Shown: positions 3 to 47,275 of the stretch, in pieces
Layout: the number at the start of each line of letters is the position of its first letter
Position numbering within the stretch: position 1 is the first letter of the stretch
Assembly (NCBI GenBank): GCA_020200235.1
Contig: JAIVJC010000134.1
Location: 1-64,000, forward strand
Length of the DNA: 64,000 bases
Direction of reading: 5' to 3'
Source: Acidobacteriota bacterium
GTDB lineage: Bacteria > Acidobacteriota > Blastocatellia > Pyrinomonadales > Pyrinomonadaceae
Position numbers and translations under genes: made by a program
The notes under the pieces: model-generated
The model's input: only the letters and a program-made list of their open reading frames with translations
What the model was told of the DNA's origin: nothing
Database searches by the model: none

Positions 3-677
3 AACGAGGATCGCCTCCACCGCCAGCGCTACTACGAGCTGGGGACCGACCTGATGATCTGGAAGATGCCCTCCTTCGAGCTGGAGAAGGAGAAGGCCGC
101 CGAGATGATGTCGAAGGCGAGGAAGTTCAAGGCGCTGATCCTCGACCTGCGCGGCAACCCCGGCGGCTACACCGAGACGCTGAAGCAGATGGTCGGCTGC
201 GTCTCGCCGAAGGACTTGAACGTCGGCGTGCTGAAGCGGCGCAAGGGCGACGAGCCCTTCGTGGCGAAGACGCGCGGCGCGGACAAGGTCTTCACGGGGC
301 AGCTCATCGTGCTCATCGACGGCGCGTCGGGCTCTGCCGCCGAGCTGTTCGCGCGCGTCGTGCAGTTGGAGAAACTCGGCACGGTCGTCGGCGACCGCTC
401 GGCGGGCGCGGTGATGCAGAGCAGGGTCTTCCCGTTCCAGATGGGCGCGGACACGGTCATCTTCTACGCGGCGAGCATCACGGACGCGGACATCGTCATG
501 GCGGACGGCAAGAGTCTGGAAGGCGCGGGCGTCGTGCCCGACAAGCTGATGCTCCCGACGGGCGCCGACCTGGCGGCGCAGCGCGACCCGGTTCTCGCCT
601 ACGCCGCCTCGCTCGCGGGCGTCAAGCTCGACCCCGAGAAGGCCGGCGCGATGTTCCCCGTCGAGTGGCGGAAGTAA
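3..677 (+). CDS. S41-family C-terminal-processing peptidase, C-terminal part (5' end outside the window)
   Basis: Frame is open from base 3; LILDLRGNPGGYTET and GASGSAAELFARVV are typical of the S41 (tail-specific) protease catalytic domain. Confidence 0.85.
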   Translation, partial: NEDRLHRQRYYELGTDLMIWKMPSFELEKEKAAEMMSKARKFKALILDLRGNPGGYTETLKQMVGCVSPKDLNVGVLKRRKGDEPFVAKTRGADKVFTGQLIVLIDGASGSAAELFARVVQLEKLGTVVGDRSAGAVMQSRVFPFQMGADTVIFYAASITDADIVMADGKSLEGAGVVPDKLMLPTGADLAAQRDPVLAYAASLAGVKLDPEKAGAMFPVEWRK

Positions 678-681
678 AAGC

Positions 682-760
682 GAACGATGAACGCGGAACG
701 ATGAACGATGAACTGAAGGCAGTCGCTTTCACTTCATCGTTCATCGTTCCGCGTTCATCT
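682..760. repeat. Heptad-phased inverted repeat (GAACGAT type), element A, between convergent genes
   Basis: Arm gatgaacgcggaacgatgaacgatgaactgaag (686-718) is complementary to cttcatcgttcatcgttccgcgttcatc (to 759), with a short spacer; followed on + by a T-rich tract. Confidence 0.9.
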
Positions 761-3087: not shown

Positions 3088-4261
<1,174 letters not shown>

Positions 4262-4263
4262 TC

Positions 4264-5800: not shown

Positions 5801-5930
5801 CGCCGCCGCAGGCGCAGAGGACGAACCCAACGATGAAGTAGGAACGATGAACGATGAACTGAAGGCGAGTGTCTTAACTTCATCGTTCATCGTTCATGCT
5901 TCATCGTTCTTCCATGCGCCTGCGGCGGCG
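5801..5930. repeat. Nested inverted repeat: 16-bp outer arms plus GAACGAT-type inner arms, element C
   Basis: cgccgccgcaggcgca (5801-5816) is the exact reverse complement of 5915-5930; inside it aacgatgaagtaggaacgatgaacgatgaac pairs with gttcatcgttcatgcttcatcgttc. Confidence 0.9.
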
Positions 5931-7266: not shown

Positions 7267-8301
7267 TCAGACGAGCCGCACGTCCCTCTCGCCCGCGACG
7301 GCGCGACCGATCTCGAAACATTTCTCGCCGCGCGCTTCGACGTGCGACTTGATCGCCCGGACATCCGACTCCGCGCAGACGACGACCATGCCGACGCCCA
7401 TGTTGAACGTGCGGTACATCTCTCGCTCCGAGACGTTGCCGAGTCGCTGCATGAGATCGAAAACGGGCAGCACCTGCCACGAGCCCAGTTTGATCTCGAC
7501 GCCCACGCCTTCGGGCAGGATGCGCGGGACGTTTTCCAGGAGCCCGCCGCCCGTGATGTGCGCGAGCCCTTTGATCAACCCACGGTCGAGTAAGTCTTCG
7601 AGCGGGCGCAGGTAGCTCGCGTGCGGTTGCAGCAGAGCCTCGCCGGCGGTCATGCCGAGTTCCGCGAGGGGCGTCTCCGCGCGGTAGTCCGCGACCTCGA
7701 AGAAGAGTTTGCGCGCGAGCGAGTAGCCGTTCGTGTGCAGCCCCACGGACGGGAGCGCCAGCACCGCGTCGCCCGCTTCGATCCGCTTGCCGTCGATGAC
7801 ATTCTCGCGATCCACGACGCCGACGATGAAGCCCGCGATGTCGTACTCGCCCTCCGAGTAGAAGCCCGGCATCTCCGCGGTCTCGCCGCCCAGCAGCACG
7901 CAGCCGTTCTCGCGGCAGCCGCGCGCGCAGCCTTCGACGACCGCGGCGACGACCTCGGGCGAGAGCTTGCCCGTGGCGACGTAGTCGAGGAAGAAGAGCG
8001 GGCGCGCGCCCTGCACGAGGATGTCGTTGACGCAGTGGTTGACGAGGTCGCGCCCCACGGTGTCGTGAACATTGGTCTCGAAGGCGATCTTCAGCTTCGT
8101 GCCGACGCCGTCCGCCGAGGCGACGAGGACGGGCTGGCGCATCTGCGGAAAAGCGCCGTCGAACATCCCGCCGAAGCTGCCGATCTCGGAGAGCGTGCGC
8201 GCGTTGAAGGTCGTGCGCGCGGATTCGCGGATGCGCTCGACCGCCGCGTTAGCCGCGTCGATGGAGACGCCCGCGTCGGAGTAGGTGATCGATTTAGTCA
8301 T
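7267..8301 (-). CDS. purM: Phosphoribosylformylglycinamidine cyclo-ligase
   Basis: SDAGVSIDAANAAVERI, DGVGTKLKIA, VNDILVQGARPLFFLDY, LLGGETAEMPGFY, AHITGGGLLENVPRILP, FNMGVGMV. Confidence 0.97.
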   Translation of the reverse strand: MTKSITYSDAGVSIDAANAAVERIRESARTTFNARTLSEIGSFGGMFDGAFPQMRQPVLVASADGVGTKLKIAFETNVHDTVGRDLVNHCVNDILVQGARPLFFLDYVATGKLSPEVVAAVVEGCARGCRENGCVLLGGETAEMPGFYSEGEYDIAGFIVGVVDRENVIDGKRIEAGDAVLALPSVGLHTNGYSLARKLFFEVADYRAETPLAELGMTAGEALLQPHASYLRPLEDLLDRGLIKGLAHITGGGLLENVPRILPEGVGVEIKLGSWQVLPVFDLMQRLGNVSEREMYRTFNMGVGMVVVCAESDVRAIKSHVEARGEKCFEIGRAVAGERDVRLV

Positions 8302-8413
8302 GTCCGTGGTCAGTCGTCCGTGGTCAGTTGTTTGTCATCTCGCAACTCGTCAGGTCTCCTCGCGGTTCGTTATTGACCGAGAACAACGGACGACTGACAA
8401 CGGACAACTGACT
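8302..8413. repeat. Heptad-phased inverted repeat (GTCCGTG/GTCAGTT type), element D
   Basis: gtccgtggtcagtcgtccgtggtcagttgtt (8302-8332) opposite gaacaacggacgactgacaacggacaactgac (8381-8412); left arm starts one base after the purM start codon. Confidence 0.9.
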
Positions 8414-12938: not shown

Positions 12939-13053
12939 GTCAGTTGTCCGTGGTCAGTTGTCCGTTGTTCGAGCCGCATGAGAGTTGTCGAAAGCGACCA
13001 CTCATGCCACCCGATTAGATAGAACAACTGACCACGGACAACTGACCACGGAC
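12939..13053. repeat. Heptad-phased inverted repeat (GTCAGTT/GTCCGTG type), element E
   Basis: gtcagttgtccgtggtcagttgtccgttgttc (12939-12970) opposite gaacaactgaccacggacaactgaccacggac (13022-13053). Confidence 0.92.
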
Positions 13054-13061
13054 GTCTTTTC

Positions 13062-14027
13062 ATGCGAGCCCTGCGCTACGAAAACGACTCGCTGCGCGTC
13101 GCGGACGTTGGTATGCCGCGCGCGGAGGGCGAGGCGTTGGTGCGCGTGTCGCTGTCGGGGATTTGCAACACCGATCTTGAGATCGCGCGTGGGTACGCGG
13201 GTTTCCGCGGGACGCTGGGGCACGAGTTCGTCGGCGTGGTCGAAGAGGCGGAGGGCGCGGGAGTGCTCGTGGGCCGCCGGGTCGTCGGCGAGATCAACGC
13301 GGGCTGCGGGCGGTGCGCGCTGTTCGCCGCGGGTGATCCGCGCCACTGCGCGGCGCGCACCGTGCTCGGCATCGTCGGGCGCGACGGCGCGCACGCCGAA
13401 TACCTGCGGCTGCCCGCGTCGAATCTTTTGGTCGTGCCGGACGAAATCTCCGACGAGCGCGCGGTCTTCACCGAGCCGCTCGCCGCCGCGTGCGGCATCA
13501 TGGAGCGCGTCGATGTAGAGGACGGCGCGCGCGTCGCGGTCGTCGGCGACGGCAAGCTCGGGCTGCTCTGCGCGCAGGCGCTCGCCGCCCTGAGCGGAGC
13601 CTCCGTCACGCTCGTCGGCAAGCACGAGTCGAAACTCGGGATCGCGCGGCGGCGCGGCGTCGAGACCCTGCGGCTCGATCAGTTGAAAGGTTCAACCTCA
13701 GCGCGCGCCTTCGACGTGGTCGTCGAAGCGTCGGGCTCGCCCTCCGGCTTCGACCTCGCGCTCTCGCTTCTCAGACCGCGCGGCACGCTCGTCCTGAAAT
13801 CGACCTTCCACGGCTCGACGGCGTTCGACTCGGCGCGCGTCGTCGTTGACGAGATCACGGTCGTCGGCTCGCGCTGCGGGCGCTTCGCCCCCGCGCTCGA
13901 ACTGCTCAAGTCGAACCGCGTCGACGTCGAGAGTCTGATCAGCGAAGAGCGCCCGCTCGCCGACGGCGTCCGCGCGATGGCGCGCGCGTCGGAAGGCGGC
14001 GTGATGAAAGTTTTGCTCCGACCGTAA
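13062..14027 (+). CDS. Zinc-type alcohol dehydrogenase-like (MDR) oxidoreductase
   Basis: VSLSGICNTDLEIARGYAGFRGTLGHEFVGVVEEA, AVVGDGKLGLLCAQALAALSGASVTLVGKHESKL. Confidence 0.88.
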   Translation: MRALRYENDSLRVADVGMPRAEGEALVRVSLSGICNTDLEIARGYAGFRGTLGHEFVGVVEEAEGAGVLVGRRVVGEINAGCGRCALFAAGDPRHCAARTVLGIVGRDGAHAEYLRLPASNLLVVPDEISDERAVFTEPLAAACGIMERVDVEDGARVAVVGDGKLGLLCAQALAALSGASVTLVGKHESKLGIARRRGVETLRLDQLKGSTSARAFDVVVEASGSPSGFDLALSLLRPRGTLVLKSTFHGSTAFDSARVVVDEITVVGSRCGRFAPALELLKSNRVDVESLISEERPLADGVRAMARASEGGVMKVLLRP

Positions 14028-14031
14028 AGAA

Positions 14032-14130
14032 GCTGTTAGCTGTTAGCGATTAGCGATTAGCCAGAGACAAGCGGCGGGCTCGGCTGACTACTGATTTGCT
14101 AACAGCTAATCGCTAACAGCTAACAGCTAA
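14032..14130. repeat. Heptad-phased inverted repeat (GCTGTTA/GCGATTA type), element F
   Basis: gctgttagctgttagcgattagcgattagc (14032-14061) opposite gctaacagctaatcgctaacagctaacagctaa (14098-14130); the last A of the right arm is the first base of the next gene's ATG. Confidence 0.92.
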
Positions 14131-15128
14131 TGAGACTGAAACCCAACCTCGCCGCCGACGGGGCGCTCGTGCTGACGACGGTCGTGTGGGGCTCGACCTT
14201 CTTCATGGCGAAGGACATCCTCGCCCGCTGGTCGCCGCTCTCCTACATGACGCTGCGCTTCGTCGTCGCCGCACTGATCCTCTTCGCGCTGTTCCACCGC
14301 CGACTGCTCGGCGCGACGCGCGAGGCGCGCCGGGCGGGCGCGATCTTAGGCGCGCTGATGGGCGCCGGGTTCGCCTTGCAGGCGGCGGGGCAGGTCTACA
14401 CGACCGCTTCGAAGTCCGCGTTCATCACCGGGCTCACCACGCCGCTCGTGCCGTTCGTCGCCTACGCGCTGTTGAGAGCGCGACCGGGTGTGGAGAACCT
14501 GATCGGCGTCGTGCTGGCGACCGTCGGCGGCTTGCTCATCCTCGCGCCGCGCGACGGGGGCGCGATCAATTTGGGCGACCTGCTGACGCTCGCCTCGACC
14601 GCCGCCTTCGCCTTCCACATCACCCTGCTGAGCGTCTACGCCCGCCGCTTCGACGCGGCGCAGATCACTTCGTTGCAACTCGTCTCGACCGCCGCGCTCG
14701 TCGTCGTCGCGTGGCTCGCGCTGCGCGCGTGCGCGCTCGTGTTCGACGGGGGCGCGCTGCCGGAGTTCGTCATGCGTGAGTCCGCGCCGCTCGTGTGGGA
14801 CGCGCGGATCGTGTGGCAGCTCGTCTATCTCTCGATCGTGGCGACGGTCGCGGTCTTCTTCCTCTGGACGTGGGGGCAGGCGCGCACGTCCGCCGCGCAC
14901 GCGGCGGTCATCTTCAGCCTCGAGCCGGTCTTCGCCAACGCCTTCGCCGTCGCCTTCCGCGGCGGGCAGGAGTGGCTCGGCGCGCGCGGCTACGCCGGCG
15001 CGGGGCTCGTGCTCGCTGGCGTCATCGTCTCGGAGCTGCGCTGGACGGAGCGCAGGAGGCGGAGGGCGGAGGGGGGTGGTCTCGGCGCGGAGTACCCGCG
15101 AGAGTCTGCGGGCGAGGCGGACGATTAA
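14130..15128 (+). CDS. EamA/DMT-family transporter
   Basis: Ten hydrophobic segments, LTTVVWGSTFFMAKDIL, SAFITGLTTPLVPFVAYALL, HAAVIFSLEPVFANAFA. Confidence 0.9.
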   Translation: MRLKPNLAADGALVLTTVVWGSTFFMAKDILARWSPLSYMTLRFVVAALILFALFHRRLLGATREARRAGAILGALMGAGFALQAAGQVYTTASKSAFITGLTTPLVPFVAYALLRARPGVENLIGVVLATVGGLLILAPRDGGAINLGDLLTLASTAAFAFHITLLSVYARRFDAAQITSLQLVSTAALVVVAWLALRACALVFDGGALPEFVMRESAPLVWDARIVWQLVYLSIVATVAVFFLWTWGQARTSAAHAAVIFSLEPVFANAFAVAFRGGQEWLGARGYAGAGLVLAGVIVSELRWTERRRRRAEGGGLGAEYPRESAGEADD

Positions 15129-19315: not shown

Positions 19316-19430
19316 GTCCGTTGTCCGTGGTCAGTCGTCCGTTGTCCGTGCTTGACGAGTCAGTGGCTTTGAGAGAACCTTCAAGCCGCGCGCCAAAAAG
19401 CAACTGACGACTGACGACTGACCACGGACA
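19316..19430. repeat. Heptad-phased inverted repeat (GTCCGTT/GTCAGTC type), element G
   Basis: gtccgttgtccgtggtcagtcgtccgttgtccgtg (19316-19350) opposite caactgacgactgacgactgaccacggac (19401-19429); T tract follows, then ATG at 19440. Confidence 0.9.
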
Positions 19431-19439
19431 AATTTTTTT

Positions 19440-41787: not shown

Positions 41788-42830
41788 CCCGTTCACGCGC
41801 CACGCTCGTCGTCCTCTTCGTCGCGCTGTGCGGCGCGACCTCGACCGCGCGCGCCGCGTCGCTCGACGGCTACCGCTCGCGCGTCAGCGTCGCGCTCAGC
41901 CACTCCGCCGAGCTCCTGGACGCGCTCAAGGAAACGGGAAGCGTCGACGGGAGACGCGAGGCTCAGGCGCTCGCCGGGGTGCGCGACGCGCTGCCGCCGC
42001 GCGAGCGCGTCGAGTGGGCGGGCGGCGTGACGGACGTCGACAACTCGTGGCTGCGCAAAGAGCTGGAAGCCTACGCCGCACTGCCCGCGGGCGACGCGGG
42101 AGAGAAGAGAAAGATCGCCGCGCGCGTTAACGCGCGACTCGCCGCGCTCAGCAGCCGCCTCGACGAGACGGCGGGCGCCAGCTCGCAGGCGGCGCGCGAC
42201 CGCGAGGCAGAGAAGGGCAGGCTCCAGTCGATCCTGCGTCGCCCCGAATACAACGAGCAGGCTTCGCACGAGACGGCGCTCGGTCGCCTGTGGAAGCAGT
42301 TCAAGGGGCTGCTGAGCAGGCTGCTGGCGGCTCGCGCGCCGATGGCTCCGGGCGCGGCGGGCTTCTTCTCGGTCGTCGCGCGCGTCTTCGTCTACGCGCT
42401 CGCCGTCGCCGTGATCGTCTTCGTCGTGTGGCGATTCGGGCCACGGCTCGTCAACCAACTCTCGACGCGGCGCAGGAAGGGGCGCGGGCGCGAGGCGCGC
42501 GTCGTGCTCGGCGAACGGCTCGCGCCCGACGAGTCGGCCGCCGACCTCCTCGCCGAGGCGGAGCGGCTCGCGCGCGCGGGCGAGCTGCGCGGCGCGATCC
42601 GCAAGGCGTACATCGCCGTGCTGTGCGAGCTCGGGGATCGCAAGCTCATCCGCCTCGCGCAGCACAAGACCAACCGCGACTACCTCAACAGCGTGCGCGA
42701 CCGCGACGATCTCTTCGGGACGCTGCGCCCGCTCACCCAGGACTACGAGCGCCACTGGTACGGCTTCGCCCCCGCCACGCCCGCCGACTGGGACGAGTAC
42801 CGCGCGCTCTGCAACCGGGCCATCCAGTGA
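41784..42830 (+). CDS. DUF4129-containing membrane protein
   Basis: C-terminal LAEAERLARAGELRGAIRKAYIAVLCELGDRKLIRLAQHKTNRDYLNSVR ... RHWYGFAPATPADWDEYRALC. Confidence 0.88.
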   Translation: MTRSRATLVVLFVALCGATSTARAASLDGYRSRVSVALSHSAELLDALKETGSVDGRREAQALAGVRDALPPRERVEWAGGVTDVDNSWLRKELEAYAALPAGDAGEKRKIAARVNARLAALSSRLDETAGASSQAARDREAEKGRLQSILRRPEYNEQASHETALGRLWKQFKGLLSRLLAARAPMAPGAAGFFSVVARVFVYALAVAVIVFVVWRFGPRLVNQLSTRRRKGRGREARVVLGERLAPDESAADLLAEAERLARAGELRGAIRKAYIAVLCELGDRKLIRLAQHKTNRDYLNSVRDRDDLFGTLRPLTQDYERHWYGFAPATPADWDEYRALCNRAIQ

Positions 42831-42857
42831 TGAGTGATGGGTGATGAGTGATGAGTA
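42827..42857. repeat. Left arm of heptad inverted repeat (GTGATGA type), element H
   Basis: gtgatgagtgatgggtgatgagtgatgagt; 28 of 30 match the reverse complement of 43233-43262. Confidence 0.92.
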
Positions 42858-43228
42858 GGATTGAGAAATTTGAAGACTTCATTGCGTGGCAAAAGGCGCG
42901 CTCCCTAACAACAGAAATTTATAAGCTGCCCGAGCAAGGAAGCTTCGCGCGAGACTACGGTCTGAAAGATCAAATAAGGAGAGCCTCCGTATCGATAATG
43001 TCCAACATTGCCGAAGGCTTTGAGCGCGGTCGGGCATCGGAGTTCCACCAATTCTTGGTTATCGCCAAAGCCTCGTGTGCGGAAGTTCGTTCCCAACTCT
43101 ACGTGGCGTTGGACGTGGGCCACCTAACGAAAGATCAGTTCGACGGTTTGCTGAATAAAGCGGCGGAGTTGGGTCGCGTCATCGGAGGGCTACGTGCCTC
43201 AGTTGAACGGAGGCGCGACGGTTCATGA
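42851..43228 (+). CDS. Four-helix-bundle protein, 23S rRNA intervening-sequence (IVP/S23) family
   Basis: [72 protein letters not shown]. Confidence 0.95.
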
Positions 43229-43232
43229 ACGT

Positions 43233-43262
43233 ACTCATCACCCATCACTCATCACTCATCAC
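43233..43262. repeat. Right arm of heptad inverted repeat, element H
   Basis: actcatcacccatcactcatcactcatcac. Confidence 0.92.
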
Positions 43263-43270
43263 TTGAGCCC

Positions 43271-45914: not shown

Positions 45915-47201
45915 TTGGGGCTCACGAGAACATTCGCACGCCTCGGCTCGCCGAGAGTCGCGGCGCACGACGACGACGACGAGGGTCGCGCCGCCTTCGA
46001 GATCGACGACGGCGTCAGGCTGCGGCGTTTGAAGATCGTGCTGATCGCGGCGCTCGTCTGCGGTCTCGCGATCAGCCGAAGGCTCTGGCTCTCTTCGCCG
46101 CGCACCTACCCGACCGCGCCCGTGAGCGACGCGCTGCCCGGCATACCTTTCCCACTCGATTACCTGTGGCTCGCGGTCGTCATTCTTCTCCTCGCCGCCG
46201 TCCTCGTCTTTGAACGCCCGCGCAAGTTCGTCGTCGCCTTCCTCGTCGCGGCGGGGCTGCTGTGCCTGTGGGATCAGGCGCGCTGGCAGCCCTGGTTCTT
46301 CCAATACTATTTCATGCTCGCGGCTCTGTGCCTCGCCGCGCGCGGCGACGAAGGCGGGGCGGGAAACTCCGCCGCCTTGGACGCGTGCCGCATGATCGTC
46401 GCCGCCACCTACTTCTGGGGCGGCGCGCAGAAGATCAACTACAGCTTCGCGTCGGAGGTCATGCCCGCGCTGCTAGACCCTTACCTCCGCCACCTGCCGC
46501 CGGCCTTCGGCGTCCTGCCGACAGCGCTCGGCGTCGCCGCGCCGCTCGTCGAAGTCTGCGCCGGCGTCGGACTCCTGACGCGGCGCTTCAGGCGCGCGGC
46601 GTGTCTGCTCGCCCTCACGACGAGCGCCGCCGCGCTCGCGCTGCTCGTGCCCGTCCGCGCGAACGTCGTCGTCTGGCCCTGGAACGCGGCGATGGCGGCG
46701 TTCGTCTATATACTTTTCTGGCGCGACGAAACTACTCCGGCGCGCGCCATTCTCGTCGGGGGAAAATCCGTCGCGCGCGTCGCGCTGCTGTTGCTCTTCG
46801 GCGCGATGCCGCTCCTCAGCTTCTTCAACCTCTGGGACTCTTACCTCTCCGCCGCGCTCTACTCGGGCAACACCAGCCGCGCGGGCGTCTACGTGAGCGA
46901 CTCGATGAGAGAGCGTCTGCCCGAGAGCGCGCAAGCGAGCGTGCGGAGGGTGGGCGACAAAAATTTGCTCTCGCTGCTCAGGTGGTCGGACGCGGAGCTC
47001 AACGTCCCGCCCTACCCGGAGCCGCGCGTCTACTTCAAGCTCGCGCGCTGGGTCTGCGCGCGCGCCGAGACAGCGTCGGACGCGGCGCTCTTGATCGAGG
47101 GGCGACCCGGAATGCTCGACGGCGCGAGAACGTCTTCCACTTACGACTGCGGGGAGTTCATCCCGCGACTACGCGCAGAGACGCAGAGAGTTGAACGATG
47201 A
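45915..47201 (+). CDS. Multipass membrane hypothetical protein
   Basis: TTG start 45915 with gggagg upstream; at least six transmembrane segments (AATYFWGGAQKINYSFASEVMPALLDPYL). Confidence 0.7.
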   Translation: MGLTRTFARLGSPRVAAHDDDDEGRAAFEIDDGVRLRRLKIVLIAALVCGLAISRRLWLSSPRTYPTAPVSDALPGIPFPLDYLWLAVVILLLAAVLVFERPRKFVVAFLVAAGLLCLWDQARWQPWFFQYYFMLAALCLAARGDEGGAGNSAALDACRMIVAATYFWGGAQKINYSFASEVMPALLDPYLRHLPPAFGVLPTALGVAAPLVEVCAGVGLLTRRFRRAACLLALTTSAAALALLVPVRANVVVWPWNAAMAAFVYILFWRDETTPARAILVGGKSVARVALLLLFGAMPLLSFFNLWDSYLSAALYSGNTSRAGVYVSDSMRERLPESAQASVRRVGDKNLLSLLRWSDAELNVPPYPEPRVYFKLARWVCARAETASDAALLIEGRPGMLDGARTSSTYDCGEFIPRLRAETQRVER

Positions 47202-47275
47202 AGTAGGAACGATGAACGATGAAGTGAAGGCGACTTCTTCTTACTTCACCGTTCATCGTTCCTACTTCATCGTTT
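47193..47275. repeat. Heptad-phased inverted repeat (GAACGAT/GAAGTAG type), element I, between convergent genes
   Basis: gaacgatgaagtaggaacgatgaacgatgaagtgaag opposite cttacttcaccgttcatcgttcctacttcatcgtt. Confidence 0.92.

What the first reader, a model, noticed from the sequence alone, without database searches (positions are those of the whole stretch)
14032..14132. Inverted-repeat arm supplies the first base of a start codon (GCTGTTA/GCGATTA family)
Seen directly: right arm ...gctaacagctaacagctaA ends exactly on the A of ATG of the EamA transporter gene (14130), and the left arm begins five bases after the upstream stop at 14027. The element fills the intergenic space and must form part of the transporter's translation initiation region; no purine-rich Shine-Dalgarno is visible. 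Suggests either precise insertion next to start codons or a role in translation.
Basis: partly seen in the sequence, partly recalled or inferred. Interest (0 to 1): 0.6.

Follow-up and report, generated by a model that had tools for sequence, protein, structure and literature searches.

The report
Heptamer-armed hairpin element between operon genes
The 98-base hairpin before this transporter gene is one of hundreds of mobile-looking hairpins, built from tandem 7-base units, that fill the gaps between stop and start codons in this genome; full-length copies carry the small 'four-helix-bundle' gene so far known mainly from insertions in ribosomal RNA genes, which suggests these intergenic hairpins and the ribosomal ones are one kind of element.

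Summary
The inverted repeat is real: arms 14031-14061 and 14098-14128, 94% complementary, tandem heptamers TTAGCNN, RNA fold z = -7.3. It does not supply the start codon. The stem ends at 14128, and the same ATG is kept in other genera that have different hairpins there. No Shine-Dalgarno: confirmed. The genome has 355 TTAGC-array hits against 3 for the control, and about 110 heptamer hairpins per Mb in five or more families. Elements hug starts (47% within -5..15 nt) but hug stop codons more (67%). Where there is room they sit at the stop side 32:8, so abutting the start follows from tight operon gaps. All five 23S-rRNA-IVP (S23, four-helix-bundle) genes of the genome sit between such heptamer arms; so do 57 of 78 IVP genes from many phyla (0.4% in mismatched controls). 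A relative carries an IVP gene between the same TTAGC arms, 4 nt before nuoB. In one genus the rpsG-fusA gap is 2-4 nt when empty, but holds differently sequenced hairpins, or IVP elements, in most species. Best reading: a short, non-coding member of an IVS-like hairpin element class, anchored at stop codons and probably cut by RNase III (inferred). I found no paper joining intergenic heptamer repeats to IVP genes.

The parts
14031..14128 (.). heptamer-armed hairpin element (TTAGC family, short form without ORF)
14031..14061 (+). left arm AGCTGTTAGCTGTTAGCGATTAGCGATTAGC (tandem TTAGCNN)
14062..14097 (+). loop, 36 nt, locus-specific
14098..14128 (+). right arm GCTAACAGCTAATCGCTAACAGCTAACAGCT (tandem GCTAANN); register runs on by AA into the A of ATG
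13062..14027 (+). upstream gene: zinc-type alcohol dehydrogenase family protein (PF08240/PF00107)
14130..15128 (+). downstream gene: EamA transporter, start conserved in about 9 relatives
42826..43263 (+). full-length element of the same class in the window (arms GTGATGA; arms 32 nt each)
42848..43228 (+). 23S-rRNA-IVP / four-helix-bundle protein gene (PF05635 E=2e-35, TIGR02436; weak to bAvd) inside that element
12939..13046 (.). heptamer hairpin, GTCCGT/GTCAGTT family, 15 nt before ATG 13062
19321..19431 (.). heptamer hairpin, GTCCGT family, 8 nt before the next start

Best explanation
The feature is a short, non-coding copy of a class of hairpin elements whose two arms are complementary tandem heptamers (here TTAGCNN). 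Full-length members carry an S23/IVP four-helix-bundle gene between the arms. Elements settle just 3' of stop codons, mostly in operon gaps; in tight gaps the right arm therefore ends against the next start codon. Shown here: anatomy, family sizes, gene content, position bias, presence/absence at orthologous junctions, lack of SD. Inferred: that the elements move as units, with IVP as the element's own protein. Inferred by analogy with rRNA intervening sequences: that RNase III cuts the hairpin in the mRNA, so the downstream cistron is left with a short SD-less leader and the insertion is nearly harmless.
For: IVP genes of the own genome between heptamer arms: 5 of 5; control genes 3 of 488, one of them an IVP. 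Class-wide: 21 of 29 score >=14 against 5.4% of mismatched pairs, lag-7 identity >=0.6 in both arms in 26 of 29. Many phyla: 57 of 78 against 0.4%, pooled lag-7 identity 0.675 against 0.22-0.27 at most other lags (0.39 at lag 8, 0.645 at lag 14). Same TTAGC arms around an IVP gene in G011, 4 nt before the nuoB ATG. GAACGAT arms of an IVP element and of short hairpins 29/31 identical in G000. rpsG-fusA gap 2-4 nt when empty (5 species), otherwise holds varied hairpins or IVP elements; clpP-clpX likewise. Stop anchoring. Coxiella 23S rRNA IVS: S23 ORF, 28-bp terminal stem, tandem GACAGAT heptamers variable between strains, RNase III excision (PMC4990558).
Against: No recombinase, reverse transcriptase or target-site duplication was identified. 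RVT_1 is absent in G000 (genome 87.6% complete). G002 has 141 TTAGC hits but no PF05635 hit. IVP number and hairpin density correlate only weakly (p = 0.08). Loops of short copies are not visibly homologous to each other or to IVP ends, so short copies are not simple deletion derivatives. Variable dinucleotides of paired units match in only 28 of 62. RNase III cleavage in mRNA is untested.
Confidence: 0.62

Rival explanations
1. Cis-acting translation element: the right-arm heptamers are a binding site (S1, Csp or CsrA-like protein) that replaces the Shine-Dalgarno and controls the next gene, as proposed for TAACTGA repeats of Beggiatoaceae.
For: 47% of start-side arms lie within -5..15 nt of the start; abutted genes have ATG in 33 of 34 and SD-like motifs in 2 of 34; in Maribeggiatoa most TAACTGA repeats end just upstream of starts with few RBSs (PMC4679880).
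Against: Elements are nearer to stops than to starts and occur in convergent gaps next to stops (13 of 14 within 11 nt); heptamer sequence differs at the same junction in each genus; empty rpsG-fusA junctions exist with 2 nt.
Confidence: 0.13
2. Host-selected 3'-end hairpin: the elements are kept because a stable stem just after the stop codon protects the upstream mRNA or punctuates operons (REP/BIME-like function); mobility is incidental.
For: Stop anchoring; strong stem; only 1 of 91 inside a gene.
Against: Does not explain IVP genes between the same arms, patchy family distribution, or very different densities among relatives. No U-tract, so not an intrinsic terminator.
Confidence: 0.15
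3. REP/RAYT system: hairpins are REPs moved by a Y1 transposase.
For: Two Y1_Tnp genes in the genome; intergenic palindromes in high copy.
Against: Both Y1_Tnp genes are flanked by other, non-heptamer palindromes; the heptamer arms are periodic and flank IVP genes instead.
Confidence: 0.04
4. Local origin: heptamer arrays arise in place by slippage and template switching, the inverted arm being copied from the first arm; no mobile element.
For: Loops are locus-specific; paired variable dinucleotides agree more than shuffled (28 of 62 against 16.4, with ascertainment bias); heptamer number varies in Coxiella IVS.
Against: Near-identical 31-33-nt arms at many loci, large families patchy among species, and a gene cargo.
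Confidence: 0.06

Closest known systems
23S rRNA intervening sequences (IVS) with S23/IVP ORF (Coxiella, Leptospira, Salmonella)
   Same: Hairpin with about 28-bp complementary ends, S23 four-helix-bundle ORF present or absent, and in Coxiella tandem heptamers in the arm (PMC4990558)
   Different: Here between protein genes, in hundreds of copies, several heptamer families per genome, anchored at stop codons; RNase III excision untested
TAACTGA heptamer repeats of Beggiatoaceae, cyanobacteria and Bacteroidetes; cyanobacterial STRR
   Same: Tandem heptamers, intergenic, close to start codons, without RBS (PMC4679880)
   Different: Described there as direct repeats (one inverted set) and read as translational regulators; no IVP gene reported; here inverted arms and stop anchoring
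Heptanucleotide elements of Geobacter metallireducens
   Same: Multicopy elements of four or five tandem heptamers, partly intergenic (PMC2700814)
   Different: Read as regulator sites; no IVP gene reported
RNase III-processed intergenic MITE hairpins (Correia/NEMIS, ERIC)
   Same: Short hairpins in operon gaps, possibly cut by RNase III (from general knowledge, not tested here)
   Different: Those have fixed terminal sequences; here periodic arms and IVP cargo
REP/RAYT
   Same: Small, numerous palindromes next to stops
   Different: No heptamer arms; the Y1_Tnp genes here have other palindromes

Membership tests
23S rRNA IVS | inserted in a 23S rRNA helix | tested here: not met
   lies between two protein genes
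23S rRNA IVS | complementary ends forming one long stem | tested here: met
   31-nt arms, z = -7.3
23S rRNA IVS | S23/IVP ORF in full-length members | tested here: met
   absent in this copy; present in TTAGC-armed L325 of G011 and in five elements of G000
23S rRNA IVS | excision by RNase III | not testable with these tools
   needs RNA end mapping
TAACTGA/STRR heptamer repeats | tandem heptamers, intergenic, multicopy | tested here: met
TAACTGA/STRR heptamer repeats | the TAACTGA unit in direct orientation | tested here: not met
   unit TTAGCNN, inverted arms
MITE | terminal inverted repeats shared with a full-length element | tested here: met
   29/31 identical GAACGAT arms; TTAGC arms in L325
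MITE | target-site duplication and a known transposase | tested here: inconclusive
   empty rpsG-fusA sites show no consistent duplication by eye; no transposase tied to the arms
REP/RAYT | Y1 transposase gene flanked by the same palindromes | tested here: not met
Rho-independent terminator | GC stem followed by U-run | tested here: not met
   none at the element

The most novel reading that the evidence does not exclude
A class of minimal mobile element without a recognisable recombinase, in which the S23/IVP pentamer acts on complementary tandem-heptamer arms and insertion is directed to stop codons, perhaps through the mRNA or the terminating ribosome. rRNA IVSs, intergenic heptamer repeats and Avd-like proteins would be parts of one system.
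Probability: 0.25. Interest if true: 0.9.

Novelty: new variant of a known kind. Interest (0 to 1): 0.7.

Why it matters
PF05635/TIGR02436 four-helix-bundle genes are widespread and have no known function, and heptamer intergenic repeats have been described piecemeal for years. If the two are parts of one element, both get a testable context. The junctions rpsG-fusA and clpP-clpX, where related species differ, offer natural presence/absence experiments on how hairpins in essential operons are tolerated and how they choose stop-start junctions.

Tried and rejected
Two gene-calling models failed before the codon model worked. A codon model for genus g9 failed; junctions there were read from open frames. 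RT-driven copying: no RVT_1 in the genome. RAYT: Y1_Tnp genes have other palindromes. Rfam: only sub-threshold chance miRNA matches at the neighbouring hairpin, none at the element. IVP count against hairpin density: weak. Junction heptamer against own IVP heptamer: clear only in G007 and G021. Stops-in-all-frames idea for 7-nt units: dropped because period-8 and period-9 arms and stop-free heptamers exist.

Full report
OBSERVATION. Between the stop of an ADH-type dehydrogenase gene (13062-14027) and the start of an EamA transporter gene (14130) lies an inverted repeat with arms 14031-14061 and 14098-14128, 29 of 31 pairs, loop 36 nt. Each arm is a run of the heptamer TTAGCNN. As RNA the region folds at -57.2 kcal/mol, z = -7.26, with the stem closing at 14128 and the ATG outside it. 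The A of the ATG merely continues the heptamer register. There is no Shine-Dalgarno and no U-tract terminator.

GENOME SCALE. The genome holds 355 matches to TTAGCNNTTAGCNNTTAGC against 3 for the reversed pattern. In 321 kb (the window plus contigs picked without regard to the repeats), the arms of all strong inverted repeats have 0.61 identity at lag 7 against 0.19-0.30 at lags 2-6 and 8-13, and 34 of 70 inverted repeats are heptamer hairpins, about 110 per Mb. Families include TTAGCNN, GTCCGTT/GTCAGTT, GAACGAT, GCGGAAT, GTGATGA and others. Arms are shared genome-wide, loops are locus-specific.

POSITION. With self-trained codon-based gene calls, 91 hairpins in 672 kb: one inside a gene. Median arm-to-stop distance is 5 nt (67% within -5..15), arm-to-start 18 nt (47%). 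In tandem gaps with at least 15 nt to spare the element is nearer the stop 32:8, p = 1.8e-4. Gaps with 0-20 nt residual length hold 26 elements where 0.4 are expected by length and 8.5 by number. In convergent gaps 13 of 14 lie within 11 nt of a stop. Genes abutted by an arm start with ATG in 33 of 34 cases and have an SD-like motif in 2 of 34, against 44% of 451 other genes, p = 5e-6.

SAME JUNCTION IN RELATIVES. The ADH-EamA pair is kept in about eleven genomes of as many genera or species. Nearly every one has a heptamer hairpin in the gap, each with a different heptamer (GTGCTGA, GAGCAGT, GTGATGA, GGCAGTA, CAGCAAT, GTAAACC and others), ending 0-13 nt before the same conserved ATG. One genome without IVP genes (G023) has none. 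In genus g9 the rpsG-fusA gap is only 2-4 nt in five species (L234, L241, L242, L245, L246). In most others it holds a 43-90-nt hairpin of varying heptamer or period-8 sequence, and in two species an IVP-bearing element whose right arm touches the fusA ATG (L219, L244). The clpP-clpX gap behaves alike, with three IVP elements. The classification of these junctions was done by eye.

CARGO. A window element (42826-43263) has GTGATGA arms around a 126-aa protein of the 23S-rRNA-IVP family (PF05635, E = 2e-35; TIGR02436 four helix bundle protein; weak match to bAvd/Avd; nearest solved structure 2gsc). All five PF05635 genes of the genome are so flanked; among 488 control genes three show such arms, one of them an IVP. 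In the class, 21 of 29 testable IVP loci have arms scoring at least 14 (5.4% of mismatched flank pairs), and in 26 of 29 the best arms are 7-periodic. In 78 loci from Chloroflexota, Planctomycetota, Bacteroidota, Nitrospirota, Cyanobacteria, Verrucomicrobiota, Patescibacteria and others, 57 have such arms (0.4% in controls), pooled lag-7 identity 0.675, with some period-8 arms. In G011 an IVP gene lies between TTAGC arms with the same outer end as the element studied here (AGCTGTTAGC), 4 nt before nuoB (nuoB named from its sequence). In G000 the arms of the GAACGAT IVP element match short hairpins at 29 of 31 positions.

INTERPRETATION. The short hairpin is thus a non-coding member of an element class whose full-length members are arms + IVP gene. 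[quoted passage not shown] Tandem heptamers near starts were described as TAACTGA repeats and read as translational elements (PMC4679880). I found no paper in the searched library that connects intergenic heptamer hairpins with IVP genes; the library is open-access only.

LIMITS. Mobility is inferred from patchy families (TTAGC 355 in G000, 141 in G002, 86 in G011, 33 in G001, 15 in G019, 0 in most) and from filled and empty junctions, not from strain-level events. No enzyme is identified: no RVT_1 in G000, and the two Y1_Tnp genes have other palindromes. G002 has many arrays but no IVP hit at 88% completeness. Twelve IVP-less genomes gave 1 hairpin in about 354 kb while IVP-bearing ones vary from 0 to 109 per Mb, and the rank correlation is weak (p = 0.08). 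Loops of short copies do not visibly match IVP ends, so the short copies are not plain internal deletions. RNase III cutting of these mRNAs is an analogy. Gene starts are called by a simple model, so single distances may be off; the conserved starts of EamA, fusA and clpX do not depend on it.

Noticed in passing
window 42826-43263: IVP/four-helix-bundle gene between GTGATGA heptamer arms, itself filling the gap between two genes (stop 42830, start 43271).
   Followed up: yes
window 686-759, 4180-4262, 5829-5908, 8301-8406, 12939-13046, 19321-19431, 47194-47274: Seven further hairpins of other families (GAACGAT, GTGACNGGTAAACC, GTCCGT); six were called heptamer-periodic, the one at 4180-4262 is weaker.
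   Followed up: partly
L083:5095-5254, L087:2705-2805, L090:2740-2813, L091:15432-15589: Another dispersed palindrome, GTCAGAACCGCCTGCGG...GCGGGCGGGT, not heptamer-periodic (REP-like).
   Followed up: no
L339:1400-2016; L093:13162-13333; L094:960-1107: A Y1_Tnp gene flanked by TTAGCCCACGGCGTAAGCCGTGGGT, a palindrome that also occurs in short dispersed copies: looks like a REP/RAYT set in the same genome.
   Followed up: partly
L063:4846-4928; L085:7812-7912; L057:12472-12563: Composite hairpins in which one heptamer family lies nested inside the arms or loop of another, with complementarity kept across the junction; suggests serial insertion.
   Followed up: no
L207, L211, L118, L271, L274: IVP elements or hairpins with period-9 arms (GTCTGTCGA, GTCTAGGAA): the unit length is not always seven.
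   Followed up: no
G010, G017, G021, G032 (control column): The reversed control pattern CGATTNN is itself an abundant tandem heptamer family in several relatives.
   Followed up: no
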